In this document: one piece after another, positions 9,023 to 60,769 of the stretch
Numbering within the stretch: the stretch's first letter is position 1
Layout of the letters: each line of letters begins with the position of its first letter
DNA from: Rhodospirillales bacterium
GTDB lineage: Bacteria > Pseudomonadota > Alphaproteobacteria > Acetobacterales > Acetobacteraceae
Direction of reading: 5' to 3'
Length of the DNA stretch: 64,000 nt
NCBI GenBank assembly: GCA_025359905.1
Contig: JANYDF010000090.1
Coordinates: 1-64,000, forward strand
The notes under the pieces: model-generated
The model's input: the letters and a program-made list of their open reading frames with translations, nothing else
What the model was told of the DNA's origin: nothing
Database searches by the model: none
Translations under genes and position numbers: made by a program

Positions 9023-9235
9023 GCGCCCTGCACCGGCAAAGGGTTCGGCGCGGGCATTCGGCGGTGTGGCATGGCGGTCTCCTGCGGGCGCCGCATTTTG
9101 GGCGGCATGGCAATCAGCTAGCGCGATTCTGCGTGTTGCAAAGGGAACATTGGGCCGCGCCGAACGACCTGCGTTGCGCTGTTGCGGCTGGCGTCACAGA
9201 CCGCTAGCGTTTCGTCATGGTGCGAGGAGCAAATG

Positions 9236-12125: not shown

Positions 12126-12185
12126 GATCGAGATGGCGGCTATCGCCATTCGCACCCCATCACGGCCGGAGCAAATCCGGCCGTG

Positions 12186-14945: not shown

Positions 14946-14947
14946 GG

Positions 14948-15451
14948 TCAGTTTCCTGCCGAGGCGGTGAGGATGTAGCCGGGCGGCATGTCGGCGAAGC
15001 CGACCAATTGGCCGCCATTGGCGTCGGCGAACCGGCGCGCGGCGGCGGCGTCGCCGAACGGGATGGCCTCACCGGTGTCCATGCCGCTGCGGCGGCGGCT
15101 GCCGATGACGAAGGTGGCGGCGTGCGCCTCCACCCAGGTGCCCGGCTCTGGCTGGTCCCAGTTCTGCGCGCGGCCCATGTCGTTGACGTAGATGGCGTCG
15201 ATGGCTTTCGGCATTTCCGGCAGCAGCGCGAAAGCGAAGGCGTCGCGCACGGTGGCGAACCAGTACGGGTCTGGCAGGCCGCGCACGAAAATCTGCCCCT
15301 TCGGTCCGGCATGCTCTGACAGCGCCATGCCGCAGAACTGCCCGACCGAGGCATCGGTGATCTCGCGTGGCGCTGGCAGGGCGGCGGCGGTTTTGTCCTG
15401 CTTGCAGGACGCCAGGGCGAGCAGCCCCAGCAATAATGCGCGGCGGTTCAT
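14948..15451 (-). CDS. nosL: Nitrous oxide reductase accessory lipoprotein NosL
   Basis: A 167-residue lipoprotein. The signal peptide ends in the lipobox LASC (Cys ~16). The copper-binding CGM motif of NosL appears in GQFCGMALSEH (~residues 38-48). NosL delivers Cu(I) for assembly of the catalytic copper-sulfide centre of NosZ. The gene overlaps nosY upstream by 4 nt. Confidence 0.93.
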   Translation of the reverse strand: MNRRALLLGLLALASCKQDKTAAALPAPREITDASVGQFCGMALSEHAGPKGQIFVRGLPDPYWFATVRDAFAFALLPEMPKAIDAIYVNDMGRAQNWDQPEPGTWVEAHAATFVIGSRRRSGMDTGEAIPFGDAAAARRFADANGGQLVGFADMPPGYILTASAGN

Positions 15452-16275
15452 ACCTGCCTCCGGGTAAACAGCGCCATTGCGGCGGTCAGCGGCAGCACGA
15501 TCCAGGCTAGCAATGCGCCGAGCAGGGCGGCGGCGCCAAGCCCGGTGCTAGCCCCAAGCCCGGCCACACCGGCAAACCCGCTGACCGCCTGCGATCCGGC
15601 CAGATTGAGCAGCCGGTAAGCATCCGCCGGATTGAGCAACAGCAGCACATTCAGCGTGCTGGCGGTCAGTGTGCGGCCCTGGTCGGCCACCAGCACGCCG
15701 AGCAGCGCCATGTCATACAACAGCACGAACAGCAGCCACACCCCGATGGCGATGCCGCCGGCCGTGCCACGGTCGCGCACCAGCGTGCTGATCAGATAGC
15801 CGATGGCGATAAACACGCCGCCGAGCAGCACCGACGAGCCGATCATGGCGGCGAACGCGGCCCAGGCGCCAGGGTCGCCGCTGCCGGTGAGTTGCAGTGC
15901 CAGCCCGGCGATACCGTAACCGGCCACGGTGGCAAAGCCGAGGATGCAGAGATGGCCGGCGAACTTGCCCAGCACCACCTGCCAGCGCGCCACCGGATAG
16001 GTCAGCAGCAACGCCATGGTGCCGCGATCCACCTCGCCCACGATCGCGTCGTACGACAGCAGCAGCGCGATCAGCGGCACCAGGAAAATTGTCAGGCTGG
16101 ACAGGCTGACGATGGTCACCGCGAGCGGGTCCACATTCACCGAACCGGTGGGCGCCGCGCCGAGAAACGCCAGCGTGAGCGCGAGGGCGGCCAGCAACCC
16201 GGTGGTGGCCACGACCCAGCGATTGCGCAAACCGTCGCGCAATTCTTTGGCGGCGATAATCAGGATCTGTCTCAT
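15448..16275 (-). CDS. nosY: ABC transporter permease NosY
   Basis: A 275-residue inner-membrane protein with about six hydrophobic segments. It begins MRQILIIAAKELRDGLRNRW, typical of NosY. It pairs with NosF and NosD to form the complex that serves copper-sulfide centre maturation of nitrous oxide reductase. It overlaps nosF and nosL by 4 nt each, so the four genes are tightly coupled. Confidence 0.93.
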   Translation of the reverse strand: MRQILIIAAKELRDGLRNRWVVATTGLLAALALTLAFLGAAPTGSVNVDPLAVTIVSLSSLTIFLVPLIALLLSYDAIVGEVDRGTMALLLTYPVARWQVVLGKFAGHLCILGFATVAGYGIAGLALQLTGSGDPGAWAAFAAMIGSSVLLGGVFIAIGYLISTLVRDRGTAGGIAIGVWLLFVLLYDMALLGVLVADQGRTLTASTLNVLLLLNPADAYRLLNLAGSQAVSGFAGVAGLGASTGLGAAALLGALLAWIVLPLTAAMALFTRRQV

Positions 16276-17177
16276 GCGGCACCCGTTTGGAACGCGGCGT
16301 ACAACTCATCGAGCGACGGCCGCAGTATTTCGATGTCCCGCGCAGTGGCGGGCAGGCCGCGCAGCACGCCGGAGAGCTCGTCCTCGGCGCAACTCAGTTC
16401 CATCGCACCGCCCGGGGCGGCTGCCCAGCCCGCCCACGGGTCGGCGCCATTCACCACCGCGCGCGGCGCCATGGGCAGATGCAGCCGGATGCGCGGGCGG
16501 ATGGCGGCGAGGCGGCGCAGGTCGGCGATGCTGCCATCGGCCACTTTGCGGCCTTGGTTCATCACCACGACGCGGTCAACCTGGCCCTCCAACTCGGCCA
16601 GCGCGTGCGACGACAGCAGCACCATTGTGCCGTTGCGGCGCAGCTCGCCGATGATTTCGTAGAAGTGCTGGCGCAACGCCGGATCGAGGCCGGAGGTGGG
16701 TTCGTCGAGCAGCAGCGCGCGCGGATTGCCGAGCAGCGCCTGCGCCAGCCCAAGCCGCTGGCGCATGCCCTTGGAATAGGTGCCGACCCGGCGATGGGCG
16801 GCCTGCGCGATGCCGGCCCGTTCCAGCAGTGCCGCGTTGGCGGCAACCGGCTGGCGCTTCAGCCTGGCATAGAATGCCAAGGTCTCTGCCCCAGTCATCG
16901 ACGGGTGCAGGGCCACGTTCTCCGGCAAGTACCCCAATTCGCGCCGGGCGCGCGCGGCGGCCCCGGCGGCGGGGTCCTCGCCGAACACCCGCACGCTGCC
17001 TTCGCTCGGCCGGATAAGCCCCAGCATCAGTTTCATCAGCGTGGATTTGCCTGCCCCATTGTGGCCGACGAGGCCGATGCACTCGCCCGCCCGCAGGGTC
17101 AGATCGACCGCGTTGACCGCCACTTGGTGGCCATAGCGGCGGGATACGCCGAGCAGTTGAACCGTTTCGGCACTCAT
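16272..17177 (-). CDS. nosF: ABC transporter ATP-binding protein NosF
   Basis: A 301-residue ATPase with Walker A GHNGAGKST (~residues 38-46), signature YSKGMRQRLG (~132-141) and Walker B ALLLDEPTSGLDP (~151-163). It is the energy-providing subunit of NosDFY. It overlaps nosD and nosY by 4 nt. Confidence 0.95.
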   Translation of the reverse strand: MSAETVQLLGVSRRYGHQVAVNAVDLTLRAGECIGLVGHNGAGKSTLMKLMLGLIRPSEGSVRVFGEDPAAGAAARARRELGYLPENVALHPSMTGAETLAFYARLKRQPVAANAALLERAGIAQAAHRRVGTYSKGMRQRLGLAQALLGNPRALLLDEPTSGLDPALRQHFYEIIGELRRNGTMVLLSSHALAELEGQVDRVVVMNQGRKVADGSIADLRRLAAIRPRIRLHLPMAPRAVVNGADPWAGWAAAPGGAMELSCAEDELSGVLRGLPATARDIEILRPSLDELYAAFQTGAA

Positions 17178-18457
17178 GGCGTCAGCCTCGTGGCAGCTTG
17201 CGGGTGCGGCGCGGCCATCAGCGGCGCGCTGTCGATCACGCCGCCGGGGTGGATCGCCGGGAACTGCGCCTGCGCCCAGCGTACTACTTGTACCGCCGGG
17301 CTGTTGAGCAGCAACTTGGCGGCAGGCGCGCGCCAGATCACCTGGTCCATCAAATCATTGGGGCGGTACGGCGTGTCGGCAATACCGTCGCCGTTCAGGT
17401 CGAACGCCGGGTTGTCACTGTAGTAGTTACCGCGCCCGCGCGACGACCAGTCCAGCAATCGCGTGCCGACATACATCACCTGCGAACGATTGGCGACGAA
17501 GGCGTTGCCGGTGATCTCGTTGCGCTCCGACCCGGCGGTGAAATGGATGCCGATTTGGCAGCCTTCGAACCAATTGCCGGCGAGGCGGTTCTTGTTGGCG
17601 TTGTAGATGAACACGCATTTCTCGGCGCCGCGTACCGCGTTGTTTTCGATGCGCGACTCGTTGGCGTAGTTCAGCAGCAGGCCGTGATCGCGGTCGCGGT
17701 CGGACACGTTGTCGTGCAGATTGAGCCGGTCCGAATACATCATGACGTAGCCGACATCGTTGCCAACCGAAGTGTTGCCGCCGACTTCGCTGTCGTTGGT
17801 GTACATGAAGTGCACCGCAAAGCGCAGGTCGCGGAAGCTGTTGCCACGTACTGTGTTGCGGCTGCTCGACACCGAAAACACGCCGTCGCGCCCGGAAACG
17901 ATCTCGTTGCCGATAATCTGCGAGCCCGGCGTGTTCCACAGCGATATTGCCGGACCGCGTTCGCTGCGCCGCAATGTGCGCAAGCCATGAATTGCGTTGC
18001 CGCGCACCATCGCGTCGTGCGGTCCGTCGAGATAGATCGAGATCAGATCATCATCGAAGCGATTGGCTTCGATGCGCAGGCGATGCGCATCACGGCCGGC
18101 GAAGATGCCGGAATCCTTGTCGATCAGCGTCATTCCCGAGCCGCGAATCGTCAGCCCGCGAACGGTGATGTCCGGCGCCGCCACGCGAATGACATTGCCG
18201 GTGCCGCTGCCTTGCAGCACCGCGCCCGGTTCGCCTTGCAAGGTCACGCCCGGCCGGTCGAGCACCAAGTCGCCCTGATATATGCCGGCCGCGAGCACAA
18301 CTGTGTCGCCGGGGGCCGCCAGAGCAAGCGCCTGCGCGGCGTCTTGCCCCGGCTGGACCAGGATCTCCGCCGCCCGCGCACCCGCCGCCGGCCATCCGGC
18401 ACCGATCGCAATCGAGGCCAACCAAAGTAAGGCAAGCTGGGTGCGCAGGCGTTTCAT
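17174..18457 (-). CDS. nosD: Periplasmic copper-binding/maturation protein NosD
   Basis: A 427-residue protein with a Sec signal peptide ending ~residue 30 (AAGARAAE) and repeated right-handed beta-helix rungs such as NNAVRGAEKCVFIYNANKN and TGNAFVANRS. NosD works with NosFY on sulfur or copper supply for NosZ. The ATG at 18457 follows the nosZ stop by 4 bp. A longer upstream reading would run through nosZ in another frame. Confidence 0.93.
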   Translation of the reverse strand: MKRLRTQLALLWLASIAIGAGWPAAGARAAEILVQPGQDAAQALALAAPGDTVVLAAGIYQGDLVLDRPGVTLQGEPGAVLQGSGTGNVIRVAAPDITVRGLTIRGSGMTLIDKDSGIFAGRDAHRLRIEANRFDDDLISIYLDGPHDAMVRGNAIHGLRTLRRSERGPAISLWNTPGSQIIGNEIVSGRDGVFSVSSSRNTVRGNSFRDLRFAVHFMYTNDSEVGGNTSVGNDVGYVMMYSDRLNLHDNVSDRDRDHGLLLNYANESRIENNAVRGAEKCVFIYNANKNRLAGNWFEGCQIGIHFTAGSERNEITGNAFVANRSQVMYVGTRLLDWSSRGRGNYYSDNPAFDLNGDGIADTPYRPNDLMDQVIWRAPAAKLLLNSPAVQVVRWAQAQFPAIHPGGVIDSAPLMAAPHPQAATRLTP

Positions 18458-18461
18458 CGTG

Positions 18462-20375
18462 TTAGGCCTTCTTCGGATGCACCAGCATCCGCCCGGCCAT
18501 TTCCATGTGCAATGCATGGCAGAACCACTGGCAATACCACCAGTGTACGCCCGGCCGGTCGGCAATGAAGGTGACAGAGGCGGTGGCCTGCGGCCCGATC
18601 TCCATGGCGATGCCATGGCGGATCAACGTGAAGCCATGCGTTAGATTTTCGATGTCATCCATGTTGGTTAGGAAGATGGTGACCTCGTCGCCCTCGTTCA
18701 CATCGAATTTCTCCAGGCTATAGGCCGGAGCATTCGAGTGCATGTAGACCCGCACCTTGTTGCCGTCGCGGATCACATCGGCGGCTTCTTCAAGTTTGAC
18801 CTTGTCCTTGGCCGCCCACTGACGGGCATCCTCCCACATCGGGTCGTCGCGCTTGTAGATGCTGATTGGGTTGATCTTGGAGCGGTGTACGATGCAGGTG
18901 TCGTGCGGTTCGGCAAAGGCGGGGCCATCGTGCACGACCTTCATCACGTCGCCGGAGATGTCGATGAGCTGGTCATTGTTCGGCTTCAGCGGACCGACAT
19001 TGATGAACCGGTCCTTGGAGAATTTATTCAGCGACACCAGCCACTTGCCATCGGCTTCCTTGGTCTCGCCCATCGATGTGTGATTGTGGCCCGGCTGGTA
19101 GTGCACATCGAGCTTCTGGATGATCGGATCGACCTTCTCGCCGGCAAATGCGCGGCGGGCCTTGTCAATGTTCCACTTCACCATTTGGCTGTCGATGAAC
19201 AGCGTGGTGTAGGCGTTGCCTTTGCCGTCGAACGCGGTGTGTAGCGGACCAAGGCCGAGTTGCGGCTCGGCGACGATCACGTCACGTTCCTTGATCTTGC
19301 TCTCGAACAAGTCGTCGAGTTTGCGCACGTCGATCACGCTGACGGTCGGCGACAGCTTGCCGTTGATGACGACATGGATGCCGTCCGGGCAGGTGTTGAC
19401 ACCATGCGGCGAGTTCGGGATTGGGATGTAGCGCGTATACTTGCTGCCGTGTTTGCCATCGACAACCTTGACGCCGTTGATCAGCTTGAAGTCGCCGCTG
19501 GCGACCGCCTGCTCGATGCGCTTGATGTTGAACACCACCGCCCAGGCCTGCTCATGGTCGGTCATCTCGGCGACCGTGGTGCCCTTGGTCGGATTGTAGC
19601 ACGACGAAAACGCGTACTTGCCCTGATAGTCGGCATCGGTGTTGTCGAGGTTGCCATCGACCAAAACCTGCCACGCCACCTCCATCTTGTCGCCATCGAC
19701 AGCGGTGAACACCGACCAGTAATTCTTCGGGTCGTCGAGCACGCTGCCGTCGTTCGGGATCGGGATGATGTGCTCGCTGTTGGCGAACACGTAGCCGGTG
19801 CGGGGATATTTCTGCGGGCGCAGGCCGTGAATGTCGGATGCGTTCGGGATCTCGATGATCTTGTCGGTCTTGAAGATGTCCAGGCGAATACGCGCCACGC
19901 GGCAGTTCGCTTTGTCGTTCACGAACAAATAGCGGCCGTCGTACGTACCGTCGGTGAACGAGACGTGCGGATGGTGCAGGTCGCCGTTATGGTAGACGCC
20001 CAGACGCGATTCCAGAAACTTCTTGGTCGCGGGCATCAGCCCTTCAGTCATAATCTTGCGGCTCTCGTTGGTGATGCCCCAACCGGTCGCGCTATCGCGG
20101 TTGAACACCGGAATGCGCACCAGTTCGCGCATCGACGGCATGCCGATGACACGCACTTCACCGGTTTGGCCCGAGCTGCTGAAGCTGTAGTATTCGTCGA
20201 GATCGCCTGGCTTGACCTCGGAACTTTGCGCCGCGCTGGCCGCCGCACGGGCCTGCTGCACGAAGCCGAGATAGGCCGCCCCGCCTGCCAATGCGGCCGC
20301 GCTGAGGGCGGCGGTGCCACCCAGAAGCCCGCGCCGGCCGACACCGGGGGCGTTGTTGTCGTGTGTATCAGTCAT
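18462..20375 (-). CDS. nosZ: Nitrous oxide reductase NosZ, clade I
   Basis: A 637-residue periplasmic enzyme that reduces N2O to N2. The Tat signal contains RRGLLGG (~residues 14-20), marking clade I. The beta-propeller has [13 protein letters not shown] and histidines of the tetranuclear copper site, such as those in DLHHPHVSF and NSPHGVN. The C-terminal cupredoxin domain holds the dinuclear CuA motif [14 protein letters not shown] (~residues 612-625). Full length with no disruption. It follows nosR by 63 bp in the operon. Confidence 0.97.
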
Positions 20376-20438
20376 AAGTTCCTCCTGAAACGGACCCCGC
20401 GGCGCGGAGCCGGACGAATAGGCGGCTGTGCGAGGCGC

Positions 20439-32565: not shown

Positions 32566-34266
32566 ATGCCGATTGTCTCAACGCCTCGCGTGCCCGGTGC
32601 GATGGGGGTGCGTGGCCGGTTATACGCCGGGTTCGGCCTGCTGGCGCTGCTGTGGCTGAGCGGCGCGATCACCGCGCTGGCCTGGGTGCGTGCCAGCGAT
32701 CTCTCGACGCAGGAAAAGCTGCTCAGCGCCGGGGATGCGCTGCGCGCCACCGAAACCGCGCGTTTGCACATGATCACCATGAGCGACGCGATGCGCGGCT
32801 TTCTGCTCGACCCATCCAACGACAGTGAAATGCAGCGCAAGCGGCTGGCCGATGAGGCTTTGACGATCGCGCTGAAAGACGTGGAGGCGCGTATCGCTGA
32901 ATCGCCAGATCAATTGGCCCAGTTGAAGGCCATTGAGGACTTCGACAACAAAGATCTGAATCCGCTGGAGGATCAGATGCTGGAACTGGTGCGCCACGAC
33001 GCTGTGGCTGGGGCGCATTTCTATGGCGATTCCTATCTGCCGGTACGCGCCATCGAAAGCCGCATGGTCGATAAGCTGGTCGAATCGGTGGCGGCAACCC
33101 GCGATGCCACGGCAGCCGCAGCGGCGTTGGCGTGGCGCACGCAAACGTGGGCCGGCGCCGCCGCACTTGCCGTGATCACCCTGATCAGCGGGATGATGGC
33201 CTGGTTGCTGGGGCGCGCCGTGGCTGCACCTGTGCTGGGTATGAGCCAAGTGCTGGACCGGCTGGCCGCCCGCGACCTCGATGCCGACATCCCCGGCGCC
33301 GGACGGCGCGACGAAATCGGCCGGATGGCGCGGTCCGCCATCGCCCTGCGCGATGGCTTGCTCGACGGGGTGCGGCTGACGGAAGCGCAGGAGACCGACC
33401 GGAAGGCCAAGGAAGTGCGCGCTGCCCGGCTGGATACGCTGATGCAAAGCTTCGAGCGCGGCACCGCCCAGGTTGCCGCAGCGCTGTCGTCGTCGGCCAA
33501 CGACCTGACCGCCACATCGCAGGCGATGTCCGGCACAGCGGCATTGACCCGCCAGCAGGCCAGCGCGGTCGCCAGCGCGGCGCGGGAATCGAGCGGCAGC
33601 GTGCAAATGGTCGCCTCGGCCGCCGAGGAAATGTCTAGCTCGGTCGCGGAAATTGCCCGGCAAGTCGCCGAATCAGGCCGCATCACACAAAAAGCAGTCG
33701 AGGACACACGCCGTACCGACGCCACGGTGCGAGCCTTGGCGGAGGGGGCGCAGAAGATCGGCCAAGTGGTTGAACTGATCGCCGGGATCGCCGGGCAAAC
33801 CAATCTGCTGGCGCTGAATGCCACCATCGAGGCAGCGCGGGCGGGCGACGCTGGCAAGGGCTTCGCCGTGGTGGCGTCGGAAGTCAAAAGCCTCGCGAGC
33901 CAAACCGCCAAAGCCACCGAGGATATCGCCGCCCAGATTGCCCAAATTCAGGCGTCGACCCGCGACGCGGTGGACGCCATTCGCGGCATTACCCGGACCA
34001 TCGAGGATATCGGCACCATCGCTGGCACGGTCGCTGCCGCGATTGGTCAGCAGGGTGTGGCGACAGCAGAGATTGCCCATAGCGCCCAGCAAACCGCCGC
34101 ATATACGCAGGATGTATCGGCCAATATCGGCGGCGTTAGCGAAGCGGCGGCCAAAGCGGGTGAGGCGGCTGGCGGGGTATTGACGGCAGCGGCTGGCGTG
34201 TCCGAGCACGCGGCGCGGCTGTCGCGCGAAGTGGCCGAATTCATTAGCTCGGTGCGGGCCGCGTGA
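32566..34266 (+). CDS. Methyl-accepting chemotaxis protein
   Basis: A 566-residue chemoreceptor. TM1 is at residues ~20-40, a ~150-residue helical periplasmic sensor follows, and TM2 is at ~190-212. Then come HAMP ([21 protein letters not shown]) and a long cytoplasmic coiled coil. The signalling tip reads [20 protein letters not shown], with [16 protein letters not shown] after it. GGAGG precedes the ATG. There is no CheB/CheR-binding pentapeptide at the C-terminus. The ligand is unknown; its place in the choline/betaine region could suggest sensing of such compounds but nothing in the sequence shows this. Confidence 0.95.
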
Positions 34267-34272
34267 CGCGGC

Positions 34273-35646
34273 TCAACACTCCGGAAACGCCACCGCCAGC
34301 CCGCCCTGCGACGTTTCCTTGTACTTGGCGTGCATGTCCGCCCCGGTCTGCCGCATCGTGGTAATCACCTGATCGAGCGACACGTAGTGCGAGCCGTCGC
34401 CGCGCATCGCCAGCGATGCCGCGTTGATGGCCTTCACCGCCCCGAAGGCGTTGCGTTCGATGCACGGGATTTGCACCAGCCCGCCGACCGGATCGCAGGT
34501 CATGCCAAGGTGATGCTCCATACCGATTTCGGCAGCGTTCTCGATCTGCGCGTTGCTGGCCCCCAGCGCCGCCGCCAGCCCGGCGGCGGCCATCGAACAG
34601 GCCACGCCCACTTCGCCCTGGCAGCCGACTTCGGCACCGGAGATCGAGGCATTCAGTTTGAACAGCGCGCCGATGGCGGTGGCGGTCAGCAGGAACACCC
34701 GCATTCCGGCGGGCGACGCGCCTGGACAGAAGTCGCGGTAGTAGCGCAGCACGCTGGGCAGCACGCCGGCCGCGCCATTGGTCGGTGCAGTCACCACCCG
34801 GCTGCCGGCGGCGTTTTCCTCGTTCACCGCGATGGCGAACAGGCTGACATGGTCCATCATCTCATGCGGGTTGCGCACGTTGCGGAACCGGTCGGCTTCC
34901 AGATGCTCGCGCAAAGCGGCGGCGCGGCGCTTGACTTTCAGGCGGCCGGGCAAAATGCCCTCGGTGCGCATACCGCGTTCGACGCAGTCCATCATGGTGT
35001 CGCGCACGCGGGCGATATGGGCTTCCACCTCATGCGCCGGGCGGCGGGCGCATTCGTTGGCGAACACGATCTCGGCGATGCTCAGCCCGGTGCGTGTGCC
35101 AATGCGCAGCAGCTGGCCGCCCGAGGTAAACGGGTGCGGCACCGCAGCGCCGGTGTCCGGCAATGGCTGGCCGGCTTCGGCCTCCGGCACCACGAAGCCG
35201 CCGCCGACCGAACACCAGCGCTCGCTGACCAGCAGGCTGCCATCCTCGGCAAAGGCGGTGAAGGCCAGCGTGTTGGGATGCGCCGGGGCCGGGCTGAGCC
35301 GGTCGAAAATCAAGTCGGTCGCCGCATTGAAGCCGATGGCGTTACGCCCGGCGAGCAACAGGCGCTGCTGGTCCTGCGCCTCGGCGAGGATGGCGGCGGC
35401 GTGGTCGGGGGCCACGGTTTCCGGAGCCTCCCCGGCCAGTCCCAAAATCACCGCTGGTCCGGTGCCGTGGCCGTCGCCGGTCCAGGCCAGCGAGCCGAAC
35501 AGGTCCACGCGCACCCGCGCCACGTCGGACAATTGCAACCGCTCGCGCAGTCCATGAGCGAAAGCAAGGGCTGCTTTCATGGGGCCGACGGTGTGGGATG
35601 AGGACGGGCCGATGCCGATCTTGAACAGCTCGAAGATGCTGATAAT
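34273..35646 (-). CDS. sdaA: L-serine ammonia-lyase (iron-sulfur type), with apparent ATT start codon
   Basis: Converts L-serine to pyruvate and ammonia using a 4Fe-4S cluster. The chain contains SSSHTVGPMKAA, TNGAAGVLPSV, GCQGEVGVACSMA and the cluster region CDPVGGLVQIPCIERNAFG. From the first ATG (35580) the protein would lose the essential SSSHT region. Reading back in frame gives ISIFELFKIGIGPSSSHT, preceded by an ATT codon with GGAGGG 7 nt upstream; the next stop upstream leaves no ATG, GTG or TTG. With ATT as Met the start aligns with E. coli MISLFDMFKVG and the length (457) is normal. It ends the soxBDAG operon, linking demethylation of sarcosine to central metabolism through serine. 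Confidence 0.88.
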   Translation of the reverse strand: MISIFELFKIGIGPSSSHTVGPMKAALAFAHGLRERLQLSDVARVRVDLFGSLAWTGDGHGTGPAVILGLAGEAPETVAPDHAAAILAEAQDQQRLLLAGRNAIGFNAATDLIFDRLSPAPAHPNTLAFTAFAEDGSLLVSERWCSVGGGFVVPEAEAGQPLPDTGAAVPHPFTSGGQLLRIGTRTGLSIAEIVFANECARRPAHEVEAHIARVRDTMMDCVERGMRTEGILPGRLKVKRRAAALREHLEADRFRNVRNPHEMMDHVSLFAIAVNEENAAGSRVVTAPTNGAAGVLPSVLRYYRDFCPGASPAGMRVFLLTATAIGALFKLNASISGAEVGCQGEVGVACSMAAAGLAAALGASNAQIENAAEIGMEHHLGMTCDPVGGLVQIPCIERNAFGAVKAINAASLAMRGDGSHYVSLDQVITTMRQTGADMHAKYKETSQGGLAVAFPEC

Positions 35647-35673
35647 GGCCGCGCCCTCCGGTTTTATGGCAGC

Positions 35674-36246
35674 CTAGACCAAAAATTCCCGCGCCGCCTC
35701 CTGCAAGAATTGCCAGACATACGGCAGGAAGCTGCGCCATGCCTCAATGTGGAACGTTGTCTCGCTCGTGCGCCATAACGTGATGTCGGCCTTGCCCAGC
35801 AACGTGCGGGTGCACATGCCAACCGGGAAGGCGGCAAGGTCGAGATCGAGCGCGCAGCCGGTGTTGAGCACGGTGGCGGCCTGCGGGCCGCTCAGGCTGA
35901 GGCCCGATTGGCGGTGGCTGATATCGACCAGCGAATAGGGCGCGCCCTCCGCCGCCACTGCGAACGCAGCCGGCAACGTCTCGGCGCCGCCGTCCGGCAG
36001 CAGCAACAGCACCAGCCACTCATCCGGGCCGAGCCACAACGCGGCACGGTTGCCGGCCACATTGGCGCGGCACACCAGGGTGGGCAGCGCCACGCCGAGC
36101 GCTTGGCCGATGGCCGCTTGTGCGGCCGGGCGGGCGCGCAGCACGAAGCGGGCCTGCGGCAGCAGCGGGGCCATGCTGAGTGCCGTGGCCGCGAGCGGGG
36201 GCACGTCCGCCAGCGGCAGGCGGCGGGCGGAGATCAGGTCAACCAT
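35674..36246 (-). CDS. soxG: Sarcosine oxidase gamma subunit
   Basis: A 190-residue SoxG-type protein. It contains LWLGPDEWLVLL, YSLVDISHRQSGLSLSGPQA, LNTGCALDLD and FPVGMCTRTLLGKA, typical of gamma subunits and the GcvT-like fold. It is part of the heterotetramer that oxidises sarcosine to glycine with methylene-THF. The start overlaps the soxA stop by 8 nt. An in-frame start 18 nt upstream is possible. Confidence 0.92.
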   Translation of the reverse strand: MVDLISARRLPLADVPPLAATALSMAPLLPQARFVLRARPAAQAAIGQALGVALPTLVCRANVAGNRAALWLGPDEWLVLLLLPDGGAETLPAAFAVAAEGAPYSLVDISHRQSGLSLSGPQAATVLNTGCALDLDLAAFPVGMCTRTLLGKADITLWRTSETTFHIEAWRSFLPYVWQFLQEAAREFLV

Positions 36247-39220
36247 CCAGACGCGCTCCCTCACGGTCGTAGAACACCGGATCGACGATTTTCACCTTAA
36301 TCGCGCCCTGCGGCATCGGCACGAACAGCGATGTGCCGATACGCGCCCGCCCGCCGGACAGCATGGCCAGTGCGATGGAATGGCCGAGATTGGCCGAGTG
36401 GTACGACGAGGTGACGTGGCCCAGCAGCGTCATCGGCACCGGCTGTTTCGGGCCGGCGACCAGTTGCGCGCCTTCCTCCAGCACGGTGGCCGGGTTTTCG
36501 GTCAACAGGCCAACCAGTTGCTTGCGGTCAGCGCCCTTCATCGACGCACGATCCAACGAGCGTTTGCCGACGAAATCCTTCTTGGCCTTGCCGATGGCCC
36601 AGGTCAGCCCGGCATCGTCCGGCGTTGCGGTGCCGTCGGTTTCCTGGCCGACGATGATGAAGCCCTTCTCGGCGCGCAGCACGTGCATGGTCTCGGTGCC
36701 GTACGGGGTGATGCCGTACTGCTGGCCGGAAGCATAAATCGCTTCCCACACCGCGCGGCCGTAATCGGCCGGCACGTTGACCTCGAAGCCGAGTTCGCCG
36801 CTGAACGATACGCGGAACAGCCGTGTGGGCACGCCCGCGATGCGGCCCTCGGCGACGCTCATGTGCGGGAAGGCCTTGGCGGAGATGTCGATGCCTTCAA
36901 CCAGCGGGGCAAGCACGTCGCGGGCGCGCGGACCCTGCACCGCAATGACGGCCCACTGCTCGGTGGTCGAGGTGAGCCAAACGTCCAGGTCCGGCCACTC
37001 GGTTTGCAGATAGTCTTCCATCAGCGCCAGCACACGCGGCGCGCCGCCGGTGGTGGTGGTGACATGGAAGCGATCCGCCGCCATGCGGCCAACCACGCCG
37101 TCGTCCATCACGAAACCGTCTTCGCGGCACATGATGCCGTAGCGGCACTTGCCAACGCCCAGCTTGGTCCAGGCGTTGATGTACATGCGGTTCATGAACT
37201 CGGCGGCGTCCGGGCCAACCACTTCGATCTTGCCGAGCGTGGAGGCGTCGAAGATCCCAACCGATTGGCGGACGGCCACGCATTCGCGGTCTACCGCCTT
37301 GTGCAAATCCTCGCTGGATTTCGGGAAGTAGTGCGCCCGCTTCCATAGGCCGACATCCTCGAACACCGCGCCGTTTTCTGCGGCCCAATCATGCATCGGC
37401 GTCTGCCGCGCCGGGTCGAACAGGCCGTCGCGCGACAAAGCGGCGAACGCGCCGAATGTCACCGGTGTGTATGGCATGCGGAAGGTGGTGTGGCCCACTT
37501 GCGGGATCGGCGTATCGAGCGCGCCCGAGGCCACGCCCAGCGCGTTCATGTTCGACGTCTTGCCCTGGTCGGTCGCCATGCCGGTGGTGGTGTAGCGCTT
37601 GATGTGCTCGATCGAGCGCATCCCCTCGCGCACCGCCAGCTTGATATCCTTGGCTGTCACGTCGTTCTGGAAATCGAGGAACGCTTTCACCGGCGATGCG
37701 CCCGGCACCAGCCCGAGCCAGCCGCCGGTGCCCGCCTCGCCACCCACGGCGCTCGCCGGATTGGCGCGGGCGCTGGCGTAGCCTGCGGCTTTGGCCGCTG
37801 CCGCGCCTGCCTGCGCGCCATCTTGCAGAGCGGCCGCCAAACCGAACACGCCACGGCAAGCGCCCGCCGAGCGTTCGCGCTCCACCGACTGGCCGGGCAC
37901 ATAGGCTTGCAACGCCTCGTCGAAACGCAGCCTGCCGCGCGACTGGCTGAACAGATGCACGCTCGGTGTCCAGCCGCCCGACATCAGCAGCGTGTCGCAC
38001 ACCACAGGCTCGGAACTGACACCGTTGGAGGACAGCGACACCCAGCGCACGCGGGTGCCGCCGCCGGTGCCGGTTACCGATGTGCCAACCCGCAGTGGAA
38101 TCCCGGCATCGCGCACCGCGTCGATCAGCGGTCCGGACGGGCTAGGCCGCTGATCGGCAAGGGTGACGATCTTGACGCCGGCTGCATGCAAGTCGAGAGC
38201 CGCGCGATACGCCGAGTCGTGCGCGGTCGCCACCACCACAAGATTGCCCGGCTTGACGCCATAGCGATTGACATACGTGCGTGCCGAATCGGCCAGCATC
38301 ACGCCTGGCCGGTCGTTGTGCGGAAACACCAGCGGGCGTTCCAGCGCACCGGCGGCGATGACAACTTCCGTTGCCCGCACTTGCCATAACCGTTCACGCG
38401 GCAAATGCGCGGCGGGTTCGGCCATATGGTCGGTGATGCGCTCGCTGAGCCCCACCATGTTGTGGGCGAAATAGCCGAACGCCGTGGTGCGGGGCAGCAG
38501 TTGCACGCGCGGGTGCCGCGCCAGCGTGGCCAGCGCCCCGGCCAGCCACGCCTGCGCCGGTTGGTCATCGATGTTAGCTTGCACGTCGCTCAGTAGCGAG
38601 CCACCGAGTTCGGCCTGCTCGTCGCATAAAATCACCCGCGCGCCGCTTTCGGCGGCGGCCAGTGCCGCCGACACACCGGCTGGGCCGCTGCCGACCACAA
38701 GCACATCGCAATGCGCCCAGCGATTGTCGTAGCGATCCGGGTCGGCCAGCGTTGGCGACCGGCCGAGACCGGCGGCGGCGCGAATGAACGGCTCGTAGTA
38801 TTTCTTCCAGGCGAACGCGGGCCACTTGAAAGTTTTGTAGTAGAACCCGGCTGGCAGGAGCGGCGACAGCGCGTCGTTGATAATCCCGATATCCCAGCGC
38901 AGGCTCGGCCAGCGATTCTGGCTGTCGGCCATCAGGCCATTGTACAGCTCGACACATGGCGCCCGCAGGTTCGGCGTGTAGCGCGCTTTGTCGCGGTACA
39001 GGCCAACCAGCGCGTTCGGCTCGTCCGAGCCTGCCGACAGTACGCCGCGCGGGCGATGATATTTGTACGAGCGGCCCATCAGGTGCACGCCGTTGGCGAG
39101 CAGGGCGGAGGCGAGCGTGTCGCCCTGCACACCCTCGTAAACCACGTCGTCGAAGCTAAACAGCAGCTTTTGCGCGCGGTCGATACGGCCGCCCTTGGCG
39201 GTGCGGAATTGCCCGGTCAT
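36239..39220 (-). CDS. soxA: Sarcosine oxidase alpha subunit
   Basis: A 993-residue subunit, normal length. The N-terminal 2Fe-2S-like fold (FSFDDVVYEGVQGDTLASAL) is followed by an NAD-binding Rossmann domain with DVLVVGSGPAGVSAALAAAE (~residue 170) and a disulfide-reductase-like core. A C-terminal GcvT domain (~600-990) with GPDAAEFMNRMY and FSGELGFEVNVPADYG binds THF. This subunit accepts the formaldehyde-level carbon on folate. The ATG at 39220 overlaps the soxD stop (ATGA). Confidence 0.95.
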   Translation of the reverse strand: MTGQFRTAKGGRIDRAQKLLFSFDDVVYEGVQGDTLASALLANGVHLMGRSYKYHRPRGVLSAGSDEPNALVGLYRDKARYTPNLRAPCVELYNGLMADSQNRWPSLRWDIGIINDALSPLLPAGFYYKTFKWPAFAWKKYYEPFIRAAAGLGRSPTLADPDRYDNRWAHCDVLVVGSGPAGVSAALAAAESGARVILCDEQAELGGSLLSDVQANIDDQPAQAWLAGALATLARHPRVQLLPRTTAFGYFAHNMVGLSERITDHMAEPAAHLPRERLWQVRATEVVIAAGALERPLVFPHNDRPGVMLADSARTYVNRYGVKPGNLVVVATAHDSAYRAALDLHAAGVKIVTLADQRPSPSGPLIDAVRDAGIPLRVGTSVTGTGGGTRVRWVSLSSNGVSSEPVVCDTLLMSGGWTPSVHLFSQSRGRLRFDEALQAYVPGQSVERERSAGACRGVFGLAAALQDGAQAGAAAAKAAGYASARANPASAVGGEAGTGGWLGLVPGASPVKAFLDFQNDVTAKDIKLAVREGMRSIEHIKRYTTTGMATDQGKTSNMNALGVASGALDTPIPQVGHTTFRMPYTPVTFGAFAALSRDGLFDPARQTPMHDWAAENGAVFEDVGLWKRAHYFPKSSEDLHKAVDRECVAVRQSVGIFDASTLGKIEVVGPDAAEFMNRMYINAWTKLGVGKCRYGIMCREDGFVMDDGVVGRMAADRFHVTTTTGGAPRVLALMEDYLQTEWPDLDVWLTSTTEQWAVIAVQGPRARDVLAPLVEGIDISAKAFPHMSVAEGRIAGVPTRLFRVSFSGELGFEVNVPADYGRAVWEAIYASGQQYGITPYGTETMHVLRAEKGFIIVGQETDGTATPDDAGLTWAIGKAKKDFVGKRSLDRASMKGADRKQLVGLLTENPATVLEEGAQLVAGPKQPVPMTLLGHVTSSYHSANLGHSIALAMLSGGRARIGTSLFVPMPQGAIKVKIVDPVFYDREGARLDG

Positions 39221-39510
39221 GCGCTGGCCTTTTTCGTCGCATCTGGCCGGGCTTCGCCGGTCTTGTAGGTGGTCACGAAGAAGTCGCTCACGGTATCGCG
39301 CACCGCGTTGAAGAACCGCCCGCAGCCGCGCGCATGGCGCCAGCGTTCGGCGTGCAGGCCCTTCGGGTTGGTGCGCGCGTACAGGAAGGCCGCCCACTCT
39401 TCGTCATTCAGCGCCGCAGGGTCGAGCGGGCGGGCGATATGCGCCTCACCGCCATAGGAGAATTCGATCTCCGGGCGTTTGCCGCAATACGGGCAGTCGA
39501 TGATCAGCAT
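39217..39510 (-). CDS. soxD: Sarcosine oxidase delta subunit
   Basis: A 97-residue protein with the SoxD zinc site: CPYCGKRPE near the N-terminus and a later His/Cys pair in RHARGCGRFF. It also carries EWAAFLYARTNPKG, a family landmark. It is the small structural subunit of heterotetrameric sarcosine oxidase, 10 bp after soxB and overlapping soxA. Confidence 0.95.
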   Translation of the reverse strand: MLIIDCPYCGKRPEIEFSYGGEAHIARPLDPAALNDEEWAAFLYARTNPKGLHAERWRHARGCGRFFNAVRDTVSDFFVTTYKTGEARPDATKKASA

Positions 39511-39520
39511 GCGACGCTCC

Positions 39521-40774
39521 TCAATGCGCGACAGCGGCGGCGGCGGCTTCGTCGATCATCACGCCGTCGCGGAAGCGTTCCAGCGTAAACGGCGCGTTGA
39601 TCGGGTGCGGCTCGTCGCGCGCCATGGTGTGGGCGAAAACGTTGGCCGAGCCGGGCGTTGCCTTGAAGCCGCCGGTGCCCCAGCCGCAATTGACATACAA
39701 GCCCGGCACTGGGGTTTTCGAGATGATCGGCGAGCGGTCCGGTGTGGTATCGACGATGCCGCCCCAGTTGCGCAGCATCCGCATCCGGCGGAACATCGGG
39801 AACAATTCGCAAATCGCGTCCAGCGTGTGGGACGGAATATGCAGCCCGCCGCGCTGGCTGTAGCTGACAAATGCGTCGGTGCCAGCCCCGATCACAAACT
39901 CGCCCTTGTCGGACTGGCTGATATAGGCATGCACGGTGTTGGACATCACCACGCAGGGGAACACCGGCTTGACCGGTTCGCTGACCAGGGCTTGCAGCGG
40001 AAAGCTTTCCAGCGGCAGCCGCATTCCGGCCATCGCCATCACCACGCTGGTATGCCCAGCGGCGACCACGCCCACCTTTTTCGCGCCGATGAAGCCCTTG
40101 GCGGTATCCACGCCCATCACCGCGCCGCTGGCGTCGCGGCGAATACCGGTGACTTCGCAGTTCTGGATGATATCGACGCCCATGTCGTCGGCCCCGCGCG
40201 CGTAGCCCCAGGCCACCGCATCGTGCCGCGCGGTACCGCCGCGCCGCTGGAGCGCCGCGCCCAGCACCGGATAGCGCAAGTTGGGAGAAATATTCAGCGG
40301 CGGGCAGAATTCCTTGGCCTGCTCGGCGGTCAGCCATTCGTTGTCCACGCCGTTGGCGCGGTTGGCGTGCACGTGGCGCTTGAACACCTGAATATCGTGG
40401 ATGGTGTGCGCCAGCATCATCACGCCGCGCGCACTGTACATCACGTTGTAATTCAATTCCTCGGACAGCGTTTCCCACAGCTTCACCGAGTGGTCGTACA
40501 GCGCGGCACTTTCGTCGAACAAATAGTTCGAGCGGATGATGGTGGTGTTGCGCCCGGTATTGCCGCCGCCCAGCCAGCCGCGCTCGATCACCGCGATGTT
40601 GCGCATCCCGTGTTCTTTGGCGAGGTAGTAGGCGGTGCCCAGCCCATGGCCGCCGGCGCCGACAATGATGGCGTCGTACGAGGCTTTCGGCTCCGGCGTG
40701 CGCCATTGCGGCTGCCAGGACGAATGACCGCCGAAGGCGCGGCGGAGCAGGGCGAAGGCGGAGAAATTCTGCAT
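39521..40774 (-). CDS. soxB: Sarcosine oxidase beta subunit
   Basis: A 417-residue FAD-dependent subunit holding the sarcosine oxidation site. The N-terminal FAD fold is [20 protein letters not shown] (~residues 35-54). [20 protein letters not shown] follows at ~64-83, and a C-terminal [19 protein letters not shown] closes the FAD site. The start [14 protein letters not shown] after the ATG at 40774 is typical; a GTG four codons earlier is possible. First gene of soxBDAG-sdaA. Confidence 0.95.
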
Positions 40775-40888
40775 GGCGGCTTCCACCGTGAGGGGGGCAG
40801 TGTGGCGGAGCGTGGCGGGGTCAGGCGAGCATGGTTCCGTCCGGGGCGTTGAACGGATACGACGCGGCGTCGGTTGGAGACAAGGCGG

Positions 40889-42556
40889 CTAACGCTGCGC
40901 CGTCTGCCAGTTCTCTGCAACATAGGCCGGCGCGTTGGACGGGGCGAGCATCGGGCGTTGCAACACGTGGTCGGCGCCCTTTTCGCCGATCATAATGGTC
41001 GGCGCGTTCAAATTGCCGGTGGTCACCGTCGGCATGATCGAACTGTCGATCACCCGCAGTCCTTCGACGCCGATCACCCGGCAATGCGAATCCACCACCG
41101 CCATCGGGTCGGTTTGGCGGCCGATTTTGCAGGTGCAGGATGGGTGGTAGGCGCTTTCGACTTTATGGCGGACGAATTCGTCGATCTGCGCGTCGGTCTG
41201 CACCGAATCGCCGGGCTGCAACTCGGTGCCCCGGTAGCGGTCGAAGGCCGGTTGCGCGAAGATTTCCCGGGTCAGCCGCACGCAGGCGCGCATTTCCGCC
41301 CAGTCGTCCGGGTGGCTCATGTAATTGAAGCGAATGCTTGGCTTGTCCGCCGGGTTGGCCGAGGCGAGGCGGACCCAGCCGCGGCTTTTTGAGCGCATCG
41401 GGCCGACATGGGCTTGAAAGCCATGGCCTTTCGCCAGCGAGGAGCCGTCGTAGGTGACTGCCAGCGGCAGGAAGTGGTACTGAATATTCGGATAGCGCAT
41501 CCCGGCGTGGCTGCGAATGAAGCCGCAGCTTTCGAAGTGGTTGGTCGCCCCCAGGCCGCCCTTGGTCAGCACCCATTCGACGCCGATTTTCAATTTGGCC
41601 AGCGGGTTCATCGCCGAATACAGCGTGACCGGCTCTTTGCTTTCGATCTGGAAGTAGAATTCCAGATGATCCTGCAAGTTCTCGCCCACCCCTGGCCGGT
41701 TGGCCACCACGGCGATCCCGTGCGACTGCAATTCGCCGGCCGGGCCGATGCCGGACAGCTTGAGCAATTGCGGGCTGTTGATCGGCCCGCCCGACAGGAT
41801 CACCTCGCGCGCCGCCCGCGCGATATGCTCGGCGCCGCCCTGGCGATAGGCGACGCCGACGGCGCGCGTGCCCTCGAACAGGATGCGGCTGGCCAGCGCG
41901 TGGGTGACGACGGTGAGGTTCTTGCGGGCGAGTGCAGGTTTCAGATAGGCATTGGCGGTGCTCCAGCGGCGGCCCTGGTGGACCGACATGCCCATGCGGC
42001 CGAAGCCTTCCTGCTGGAAGCCATTGTAATCGCTGGTTGCCGGGTAGCCTGCTTGCTGTGCTGCGGCGAGCCAGGCGGCGTGCAGCGGATTTTCCAGCGT
42101 GCCGTATTGGTTGTGCAGCGGGCCTTCGGCGCTGCGGTATGCGGCGTCGCCTTCGGCATGGCCGTCGGCGCGCTGGAAATACGGCAGCACATCGGCATAC
42201 GCCCAGCCATCGGCGCCTTGTTCGGCCCAATGATCGAAATCCAGCGGATTGCCGCGCACCCACACCATGCCGTTGATCGACGACGAGCCGCCCAGCACCT
42301 TGCCGCGCGGCGTGTGCAGGCGGCGGCCGCCAAGGTAAGGCTCGGGGTCGGTTTCGTAGTGCCAATTGTACTTCGGCATATTCATCGGGATCGACAGCGC
42401 GCTGGGCATCTGGATCAGCACGGATTTGTCCGAGCCGCCGAATTCCAGCAGCAGCACGCGATGAGCGGCGTCCGCCGACAACCGGTTGGCCAGCACGCAA
42501 CCGGCGGAGCCGGCGCCAACGATGATGAAATCGAACTCGCTCGGGGATTGGGGCAT
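40889..42556 (-). CDS. betA: Choline dehydrogenase-like GMC oxidoreductase
   Basis: A 555-residue GMC flavoenzyme. It has the FAD fold DFIIVGAGSAGCVLANRL at the N-terminus, the GMC signatures RGKVLGGSSSINGMVWVRG (~residue 80) and GGPINSPQLLKLSGIGP (~265), and a C-terminal ESAYHPSCTCKIG with the active-site histidine, plus NLNAPTIMIGEKGAD. The length and these motifs match BetA, which oxidises choline to betaine aldehyde. Betaine aldehyde dehydrogenase is not in the window. It is divergent from the choline transporter genes (150-bp gap), supporting a choline role. The ATG at 42556 gives the family N-terminus. Confidence 0.87.
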   Translation of the reverse strand: MPQSPSEFDFIIVGAGSAGCVLANRLSADAAHRVLLLEFGGSDKSVLIQMPSALSIPMNMPKYNWHYETDPEPYLGGRRLHTPRGKVLGGSSSINGMVWVRGNPLDFDHWAEQGADGWAYADVLPYFQRADGHAEGDAAYRSAEGPLHNQYGTLENPLHAAWLAAAQQAGYPATSDYNGFQQEGFGRMGMSVHQGRRWSTANAYLKPALARKNLTVVTHALASRILFEGTRAVGVAYRQGGAEHIARAAREVILSGGPINSPQLLKLSGIGPAGELQSHGIAVVANRPGVGENLQDHLEFYFQIESKEPVTLYSAMNPLAKLKIGVEWVLTKGGLGATNHFESCGFIRSHAGMRYPNIQYHFLPLAVTYDGSSLAKGHGFQAHVGPMRSKSRGWVRLASANPADKPSIRFNYMSHPDDWAEMRACVRLTREIFAQPAFDRYRGTELQPGDSVQTDAQIDEFVRHKVESAYHPSCTCKIGRQTDPMAVVDSHCRVIGVEGLRVIDSSIMPTVTTGNLNAPTIMIGEKGADHVLQRPMLAPSNAPAYVAENWQTAQR

Positions 42557-42706
42557 GGGGCGGAGGAACACCCACGCTGGCCGCCGCGTCAAGCGCGGCC
42601 GCGTCAGTTGGCGCTGTTCAGCGGCGGGCAAATATGTATCCATCGGGTATCAGCCACGCGCCGGGGGCCAAGCTCGGGCCGCGGGCATCGATGAGGGAGG
42701 AAAGTG

Positions 42707-43645: not shown

Positions 43646-43655
43646 CAACCACGAC

Positions 43656-43684
43656 GCCCCCTGCCTGCACGGCAGGCGGGGGGC
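43656..43684 (+). promoter_or_regulatory. Stem-loop between choX and choW
   Basis: GCCCCCTGCCTG (43656-43667), loop CACGG, and CAGGCGGGGGGC (43673-43684) form a 12-bp stem with one G-U pair. It begins 11 bp after the choX stop and precedes choW. Such hairpins after binding-protein genes often stabilise the upstream mRNA or partly terminate transcription, raising the ratio of binding protein to membrane parts. Confidence 0.65.
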
Positions 43685-43705
43685 CTTGGCGCCGGGGGGC
43701 AAGCG

Positions 43706-44563
43706 ATGGAGCGGTTGGTGGCGTTCATCACCGACAACAAAGTGCCGGTGGGCGACTGGATGGCCGACATTGTCGAGTTCATCAAGGACAACACGCTCAG
43801 CCTGTTCGACATCGTCACCGCGAGCATCAGCTTCGTGGTGGATAGCTTCACCGGCGCGCTGGAATGGATGCCTGAGCCGATCCTGATCGTGCTGCTGGCG
43901 GGGGCAACCTATGTGCTGCGGCGGTCCTGGAGTCTGGCCGGCTTTGTAGCCTTCGCGTTGTTGTTCGTGCTCAACCAGGGCTACTGGACCGAGACTATGG
44001 AGACGCTGACGCTGGTGTTGTTCGCGACACTCGCCTCGGCGCTGATCGGCGTGCCGCTCGGCATCGCCGCGGCACATCGGCCCTGGCTGTATCAGGCGCT
44101 GCGCCCGGTGCTGGATTTGATGCAGACGCTGCCGACCTTCGTGTATTTGCTGCCAACGCTGGTGCTGTTCGGGCTCGGCGTGGTGCCCGGCCTGATTTCG
44201 ACGGTGATTTTCGCGCTGCCGGCGCCGGTGCGGCTGACCCATCTGGGCATCACCTCGGTACCGCGTCCGCTGATCGAAGCGGGTGAGGCGTTCGGCGCCA
44301 CCAAGCGGCAATTGCTGTGGAAAGTGGAACTCCCCGCCGCCCGCGCGACGATCTTTGCCGGGATCACGCAATGCATCATGCTGTCGCTGTCGATGGTGGT
44401 GATCGCCGCGCTGGTGGGTGCAGGCGGGCTTGGCGTGCCAGTGGTGCGCGCGCTCAATCAGGTGAAGGTCGGTATGGGGTTCGAAGCCGGATTCGCCATC
44501 GTGCTGGTCGCCATCGTGCTTGACCGGGTCTGCCGCCCCGCCGAACAGAACGTGCCGCGATGA
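43706..44563 (+). CDS. choW: Choline/betaine ABC transporter permease (ChoW/ProW-like)
   Basis: A 285-residue permease with five to six membrane helices. It contains the family loop GEAFGATKRQLLWKVELPAA (the ATPase contact) and QTLPTFVYLLP. It works with ChoX and ChoV. The stop overlaps the ATPase gene (ATGA). A G-rich ribosome site precedes the ATG. Confidence 0.92.
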   Translation: MERLVAFITDNKVPVGDWMADIVEFIKDNTLSLFDIVTASISFVVDSFTGALEWMPEPILIVLLAGATYVLRRSWSLAGFVAFALLFVLNQGYWTETMETLTLVLFATLASALIGVPLGIAAAHRPWLYQALRPVLDLMQTLPTFVYLLPTLVLFGLGVVPGLISTVIFALPAPVRLTHLGITSVPRPLIEAGEAFGATKRQLLWKVELPAARATIFAGITQCIMLSLSMVVIAALVGAGGLGVPVVRALNQVKVGMGFEAGFAIVLVAIVLDRVCRPAEQNVPR

Positions 44564-60709: not shown

Positions 60710-60769
60710 TGTCCGGAATTAGGTTGGCCAGGGGAGTGCCACGATTGGCCAACGGTCAAGGGGCGAAGC

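What the first reader, a model, noticed from the sequence alone, without database searches (positions are those of the whole stretch)
34273..35646. L-serine dehydratase gene apparently starting at an AUU codon
The conserved SdaA N-terminus (ISIFELFKIGIGPSSSHT) is encoded upstream of the first ATG. Between it and the in-frame stop there is no ATG, GTG, TTG or CTG. An ATT with GGAGGG 7 nt upstream sits exactly where E. coli SdaA has Met. AUU starts are known for infC and are subject to IF3 discrimination, so SdaA output may respond to initiation fidelity. Automated annotation from 35580 would drop the essential SSSHT motif.
Basis: partly seen in the sequence, partly recalled or inferred. Interest (0 to 1): 0.6.

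Follow-up and report, generated by a model that had tools for sequence, protein, structure and literature searches.

The report
Serine dehydratase starting at AUU codon
A serine-degrading enzyme gene in a relative of the acetic acid bacteria lacks any normal start codon and very probably starts at AUU behind a strong ribosome-binding site; a related genus has AUC at the same spot, so this is a rare but known kind of weak start signal that probably keeps the enzyme scarce.

Summary
sdaA (34273-35646, minus) encodes a full-length L-serine dehydratase (TIGR00720). Between the in-frame TAG, which is also the stop of soxG, and the conserved SSSHT motif there is no ATG, GTG or TTG; GGAGGG lies 7 nt before an ATT where relatives have Met. 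Both genomes held of a related genus, with the same soxA-soxG-sdaA order, have ATC at that codon and no usual start upstream of it; the window's one congener has ATG. Of 195 distinct N-termini read (the window's included), 191 have ATG/GTG/TTG at that codon or within 12 codons upstream; three of the other four are these. Their ribosome-binding sites rank 1, 9 and 10 of 154. Read-through from soxG is unlikely: the spacer is not conserved and is out of frame in the ATG congener. infC starts with ATA in all 9 genomes where it was found, 10 searched. Best reading: inefficient near-cognate initiation keeps SdaA low relative to sarcosine oxidase. Control by IF3 is untested, and drift is a serious rival on meaning. 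New member of a known kind (infC, pcnB, sigR, cvfC1, ccpN).

The parts
34273..35646 (-). sdaA: L-serine dehydratase (L-serine ammonia-lyase), 457 codons from ATT
   Evidence: TIGR00720 644 bits, residues 2-453; PF03315 and PF03313; aligns to PDB 4rqo over residues 2-457
35644..35646 (-). ATT, inferred start codon
   Evidence: aligned with ATG of the congener and ATC of the related genus; no canonical start in frame upstream
35654..35659 (-). GGAGGG Shine-Dalgarno sequence, 7 nt before ATT
   Evidence: duplex with anti-SD -10.0 kcal/mol, rank 9 of 154
35674..35676 (-). TAG stop of soxG, in frame with sdaA, 27 nt before ATT
35578..35580 (-). first in-frame ATG (Met23 of sdaA), a rival start; hardly any SD (-1.7 kcal/mol)
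35590..35604 (-). codons of the conserved SSSHT motif, upstream of that ATG
   Evidence: the motif search read 226 of 229 loci
35674..36246 (-). soxG, sarcosine oxidase gamma subunit; ATG at 36246 overlaps the soxA stop
   Evidence: TIGR01375 146 bits on the frame from GTG 36264; start at ATG 36246 inferred from the overlap with soxA
36239..39220 (-). soxA, sarcosine oxidase alpha subunit
   Evidence: TIGR01372 1476 bits; start inferred from the ORF translation
39521..40888 (-). soxB, sarcosine oxidase beta subunit (stop-to-stop frame)
   Evidence: TIGR01373 717 bits

Best explanation
sdaA is the last gene of a soxB-soxA-soxG-sdaA run and is translated from AUU (AUC in the related genus). A strong Shine-Dalgarno sequence 7-9 nt upstream places the 30S subunit; initiator fMet-tRNA reads AUU/AUC with a third-position mismatch, so the protein still begins with fMet-Ile-Ser. 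Ribosomes ending soxG 27-30 nt upstream may help by re-initiating. Because near-cognate starts are disfavoured by IF3, SdaA should be made at a fraction of the level an AUG would give, below that of the sarcosine oxidase subunits of the same gene run. Shown: the sequence anatomy, its presence in three genomes, and a conserved ATA at the start of infC in the family. Inferred: use of AUU/AUC in the cell, low output, coupling to soxG, IF3 sensitivity, and any benefit such as avoiding loss of serine made from sarcosine-derived glycine and one-carbon units. The confidence given is for AUU/AUC as the working start; for a selected, rate-setting role I would give about 0.4.
For: No ATG/GTG/TTG from the soxG stop to SSSHT. 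AUC at the same codon, with no usual start upstream, in both genomes held of genus g28 (G028, G138). Same gene order and a 27-35 nt gap in the four clade members. SD energies of the three non-AUG genes rank 1, 9 and 10 of 154. The four-way DNA alignment is gapless from GGCCAT[T/C/G]ATCAGC on, but upstream has gaps not divisible by three when the ATG congener is included. Anti-SD GGATCACCTCCTTT found in G028. infC has ATA after GGAG in all 9 genomes where it was found, 10 searched, the window's own among the 9. Precedents: S. aureus cvfC1 AUU and ccpN AUA with extended SDs, about 10% of AUG reporter output in poor medium, up to 30% for ccpN in rich medium (PMC13009471, passages); sigR GTC limited by IF3 (PMC5472188, abstract and discussion); in a reconstituted system more IF3 lowered the share of full-length product for AUU read by a CAU anticodon while it rose for matched pairs (PMC10158994, passages).
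Against: The nearest congener (G001) has ATG, so the weak start is not needed for the gene run to work. The window's ATT itself is seen in one assembly only, a draft in 162 contigs. No proteome, ribosome profile or reporter was available. The ATG congener also has a strong SD (rank 8 of 154), so the strong SD is no proof of compensation. The predicted folds around the start are ordinary (z 1.07 in the window; 0.78, 1.30 and -0.31 in the other three). G138 has a TTG, and the window and G028 have CTG, at codon 7, which could start a protein six residues shorter, though far from the SD. The fMet tRNA and the rRNA 3' end were not found in the window's assembly.
Confidence: 0.83

Rival explanations
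1. The ATT is an assembly or sequencing error for ATG in the window.
For: One draft assembly; the congener G001 has ATG.
Against: Two further assemblies have ATC at the same codon with no usual start upstream, so the clade does carry near-cognate codons here; the rest of the frame is intact.
Confidence: 0.06
2. SdaA is made as a SoxG-SdaA fusion by read-through of the in-frame TAG.
For: The soxG stop is TAG and in frame with sdaA in all three non-AUG genomes.
Against: The spacer peptides are not conserved (AAIKPEGAA, ARARQGRTAA, TAPATRRAAA). In G001 the gap is 35 nt and out of frame. 30 of 59 soxG-linked loci are in frame, 27 of these 30 with ATG at codon 1, so the frame coincidence is common.
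Confidence: 0.04
3. Translation starts inside the conserved N-terminus (TTG or CTG at codon 7, or ATG 35580 = Met23) and the first residues are not made, or the gene is decaying.
For: ATG 35580 is the first ATG/GTG/TTG in the window's frame; codon 7 is CTG in the window and G028 and TTG in G138.
Against: Hardly any SD before Met23 (-1.7 kcal/mol), and codon 7 lies 18 nt further from the strong SD than codon 1; a start at Met23 drops SSSHT and the first part of the SDH_beta domain, which begins at residue 3; codons 2-22 are largely conserved in the four clade members; no stop inside the gene.
Confidence: 0.05
4. The weak start has no regulatory meaning: with a strong SD and coupling to soxG the third base of the start codon is nearly free to drift.
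For: Three different third bases (T, C, G) in four genomes; strong SD also in the ATG member.
Against: Switches from AUG to AUU are extremely rare in published reconstructions (1 of 61,358, PMC5622118, passage), which speaks against such freedom in general. This rival concerns meaning, not the start itself, and cannot be decided with four genomes.
Confidence: 0.4

Closest known systems
E. coli infC and pcnB (AUU starts)
   Same: AUU as start codon, output limited by an inefficient start; a passage in PMC9410913 calls them the only two E. coli genes starting with AUU
   Different: There the products are IF3 itself and (recalled) poly(A) polymerase; here an amino-acid catabolic enzyme at the end of a gene run. 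IF3 control was not tested here.
Streptomyces sigR (GTC start repressed by IF3)
   Same: Non-canonical start with an extensive SD in an operon where relative amounts of partners matter (PMC5472188)
   Different: GTC, not AUU/AUC; sigR is upstream of its partner; IF3 control was shown there by mutants, not here.
S. aureus cvfC1 (AUU) and ccpN (AUA)
   Same: Conserved non-canonical starts with extended SD sequences; reporter output well below AUG (PMC13009471, passages)
   Different: A small protein and a transcriptional repressor in S. aureus; here the start varies between AUU, AUC and AUG within four genomes.
one-chain iron-sulfur L-serine dehydratases such as SdaA (PDB 4rqo)
   Same: Homology over residues 2-457, SSSHT included
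   Different: 191 of the 195 distinct N-termini read have ATG, GTG or TTG at codon 1 or within 12 codons upstream; the window, G028 and G138 do not.

Membership tests
one-chain iron-sulfur L-serine dehydratase (TIGR00720) | full-length match above the curated cut-off | tested here: met
   644 bits against a cut-off of 345.1, residues 2-453 on profile positions 1-449 of 450
one-chain iron-sulfur L-serine dehydratase (TIGR00720) | both SDH_beta and SDH_alpha domains in one chain | tested here: met
   PF03315 residues 3-156 and PF03313 residues 186-451
one-chain iron-sulfur L-serine dehydratase (TIGR00720) | iron-sulfur cluster binding and serine deaminase activity | not testable with these tools
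   the stretches CQGEVG and TCDPV.GLVQIPC align with PDB 4rqo; that these cysteines bind the cluster is recalled
genes with a near-cognate (AUU/AUC/AUA) start | no canonical start between the in-frame stop and the conserved N-terminus | tested here: met
   none upstream of codon 1 in the window, G028 and G138; G138 has a TTG at codon 7, inside the conserved N-terminus
genes with a near-cognate (AUU/AUC/AUA) start | strong, well-spaced SD before the near-cognate codon | tested here: met
   -10.0 to -11.5 kcal/mol, ranks 1, 9, 10 of 154
genes with a near-cognate (AUU/AUC/AUA) start | start kept in relatives | tested here: inconclusive
   near-cognate in 3 of the 4 clade genomes, ATG in G001
genes with a near-cognate (AUU/AUC/AUA) start | initiation there shown by peptides or ribosome profiling | not testable with these tools
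   the tools hold no such data for these genomes
IF3-regulated genes (infC, sigR type) | output changes with IF3 level or IF3 mutants | not testable with these tools
   inference from PMC5472188, PMC13009471 and PMC10158994 only

The most novel reading that the evidence does not exclude
The near-cognate start is a metabolic sensor: SdaA, which removes serine, a main one-carbon donor, is translated in proportion to initiation fidelity, and fidelity itself depends on one-carbon supply (tRNA formylation, rRNA methylation; PMC7949028, passages). When sarcosine breakdown floods the cell with one-carbon units, or IF3 changes, SdaA output would shift relative to sarcosine oxidase without any dedicated regulator. 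The family's initiator tRNA, with an A-U pair in place of the first of the three G-C pairs, could make this discrimination unusual.
Probability: 0.07. Interest if true: 0.75.

Novelty: new member of a known kind. Interest (0 to 1): 0.42.

Why it matters
Few genes are known to start at AUU or AUC, and annotation limited to usual starts misses them; here it would remove the first 22 residues. This case adds a central metabolic enzyme, two different near-cognate codons at one site in related genera, and an ATG congener as a natural control. It makes a simple test possible: does a weak start set the ratio between enzymes of one gene run, and does it respond to IF3 or to one-carbon supply?

Tried and rejected
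Read-through of the soxG TAG: rejected on spacer divergence and frame. Internal start at Met23: rejected on SD and conservation. Lone sequencing error: made unlikely by ATC in two other genomes.

A habit of the whole genome: one search chose 54 stop-to-stop frames in the window; in 18 of them, sdaA included, the first ATG/GTG/TTG lies 57 nt or more into the frame. The other 17, plus betA for the gene run, were sent to NCBIfam; nine of these 18 also to Pfam, with sdaA as tenth protein. The remaining frames were not sent, except soxG and soxA. sdaA is the only one whose family match begins clearly before the first usual start. Against this: two frames had no match (14951-15547, 60710-61297); several matches begin too far inside to judge; a Crp-like frame (8318-9193) has two weak matches starting 2 and 4 residues, and a permease frame (12126-13061) one weak match starting 1 residue, before the first usual start; the ApbE frame (13965-15068) is undecided.

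An RNA structure around the start: nothing unusual in four sequences. Initiator tRNA and rRNA end in the window's own genome: patterns not found in the assembly.

Limits of the census: not all of the 181 family matches were examined. N-termini were read for the 129 loci and for 100 fetched stretches, the last 40 of them chosen partly because the match began at residue 1, 3 or 4. Three of these 229 loci gave no readable N-terminus (L023, L065, L188). The fourth N-terminus without a near start, L216 (Asn at codon 1), has CTG 3, GTG 18 and ATG 34 codons up and looks like a longer N-terminus.

Paper searches 'sdaA / start codon / serine dehydratase', 'AUU start codon' sets, 'AUC start codon' and 'non-canonical start codon': the listings showed no report of a non-AUG sdaA, but I saw listings only for most papers, and most subscription papers are not in that library.

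Full report
What is there. On the minus strand the window carries soxB (39521-40888 as an open frame), soxA (36239-39220), soxG (35674-36246) and sdaA, with betA (40889-42649, minus) and, on the plus strand, a choline transporter permease (43646-44563) nearby. sdaA is a complete one-chain L-serine dehydratase: TIGR00720 at 644 bits against a cut-off of 345.1, both Pfam domains, and alignment over residues 2-457 with PDB 4rqo. Its frame opens right after the TAG of soxG. Nine codons follow, none a usual start, then ATT ATC AGC ATC TTC GAG. The first ATG in the frame is codon 23, beyond SSSHT.

Is it real. The same protein was sought in 60 relatives, the genus, the family and the class and in named genomes. 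In 195 distinct N-termini, the window's included, 145 have ATG, GTG or TTG at the aligned first codon and 46 more have one within 12 codons upstream; four have neither. One (L216) has Asn there and possible starts further up. The other three are the window (ATT), G028 (ATC) and G138 (ATC). G028 and G138 are the only two genomes held of their genus. G001, the only other genome held of the window's genus, has ATG. The tree of 32 proteins places the four in one clade (99/96), the two ATC genomes together (100/99) and the window with G001 (86/65); genomes of the nearest outgroup genus, where 3 of 5 have the gene, have ATG, ATG and GTG. The best tree needs two changes of the label, though its well-supported branches alone force only one: either two independent losses of AUG or one loss and one return. 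Since losses to AUU are very rare (1 of 61,358 ancestral AUG starts) and returns from GUG to AUG are far commoner (202 of 5,080) in PMC5622118 (passage), one loss with a return in G001 seems likelier; this is inference.

How it is read. GGAGGG stands 7 nt before ATT; the predicted duplex with the anti-SD is -10.0 kcal/mol. Among 154 distinct loci the three non-AUG genes rank 1, 9 and 10; the ATG congener ranks 8; the median is -4.0. The relatives are not independent, so this is a description, not a test. The anti-SD pattern was found in 3 of 7 assemblies searched, G028 among them but not the window's. The alignment of the four junctions is gapless from GGCCAT[T/C/G]ATCAGC onward and has gaps before it, which marks where coding begins. 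The three in-frame spacers read AAIKPEGAA, ARARQGRTAA and TAPATRRAAA, without conservation, and in G001 the gap is 35 nt and out of frame, so a SoxG-SdaA fusion is not supported; in-frame gaps occur in 30 of 59 soxG-linked loci anyway. The start at Met23 has hardly any SD (-1.7 kcal/mol). Codon 7 is CTG in the window and G028 and TTG in G138; it lies 18 nt further from the SD.

Positive control. infC was found in 9 of 10 genomes searched (not in G138). In all nine, ATA followed by GCC or GCT stands a few nt after GGAG (six, three), including the window's own genome. The ATA start is itself inferred: several have an ATG or CTG a few codons later, and in L135 the frame is open further upstream. 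The family therefore probably does use near-cognate starts in the known way.

Mechanism. Near-cognate starts give low output and are disfavoured by IF3. In S. aureus, non-canonical starts with extended SDs gave about 10% of AUG reporter output in poor medium and up to 30% for ccpN in rich medium (PMC13009471, passages). In Streptomyces a GTC start with an extensive SD, limited by IF3, sets the ratio of SigR to its partner (PMC5472188, abstract and discussion). Re-initiation after an upstream gene is inhibited by excess IF3, less so when an SD is present (PMC2268962, passages). By analogy, AUU/AUC probably keeps SdaA low relative to the sarcosine oxidase subunits. The metabolic reason is inference: sarcosine gives glycine and one-carbon units, which make serine; too much SdaA would drain it to pyruvate. 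Drift under cover of a strong SD and coupling is a serious rival on meaning.

Novelty. AUU starts are known (infC, pcnB, cvfC1). I found no report of a non-AUG sdaA in the searches named under Tried and rejected. This is a new member of a known kind, with the attraction that two related genera carry two different near-cognate codons and one congener carries ATG.

Noticed in passing
L136 (own genome, G000:C90 near 8139) and L130-L135, L137, L138: infC (IF3) appears to start with ATA, with GGAG a few nt upstream and GCC or GCT next, in all 9 genomes where it was found, of 10 searched; a usual-start caller would misplace the start.
   Followed up: partly
L239-L253 (G019, G023, G026, G028, G116, G217): The initiator-type tRNA in 6 of 10 genomes searched has AGG/CCT in the anticodon stem, an A-U pair in place of the first of the three G-C pairs. 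The GGG/CCC form was absent from 7 of 7 genomes searched. G000, G001, G138 and G174 show neither form, perhaps through assembly gaps.
   Followed up: partly
window 32566-34275: sdaA and a methyl-accepting chemotaxis protein gene converge with only 6 nt between their stop codons.
   Followed up: no
window 13962-20438: Nitrous-oxide reductase nosZ (18465-20438) with an ABC-transporter ATPase and an ApbE-family gene nearby, perhaps a nos cluster.
   Followed up: no
window 39280-39510: Between soxB and soxA a frame opens at ATG 39510 that looks like soxD (name from position, recalled; no family search made).
   Followed up: no
L022/L024 (G031:C10): A second sdaA gene with about 38 extra residues near query residue 310 in one open frame of 500, in a genome that also has a normal copy.
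   Followed up: no
G028 lies in family f1, in which other genomes have contig lengths equal to those of Gluconobacter and Asaia records, so the record name looks wrong.
   Followed up: no
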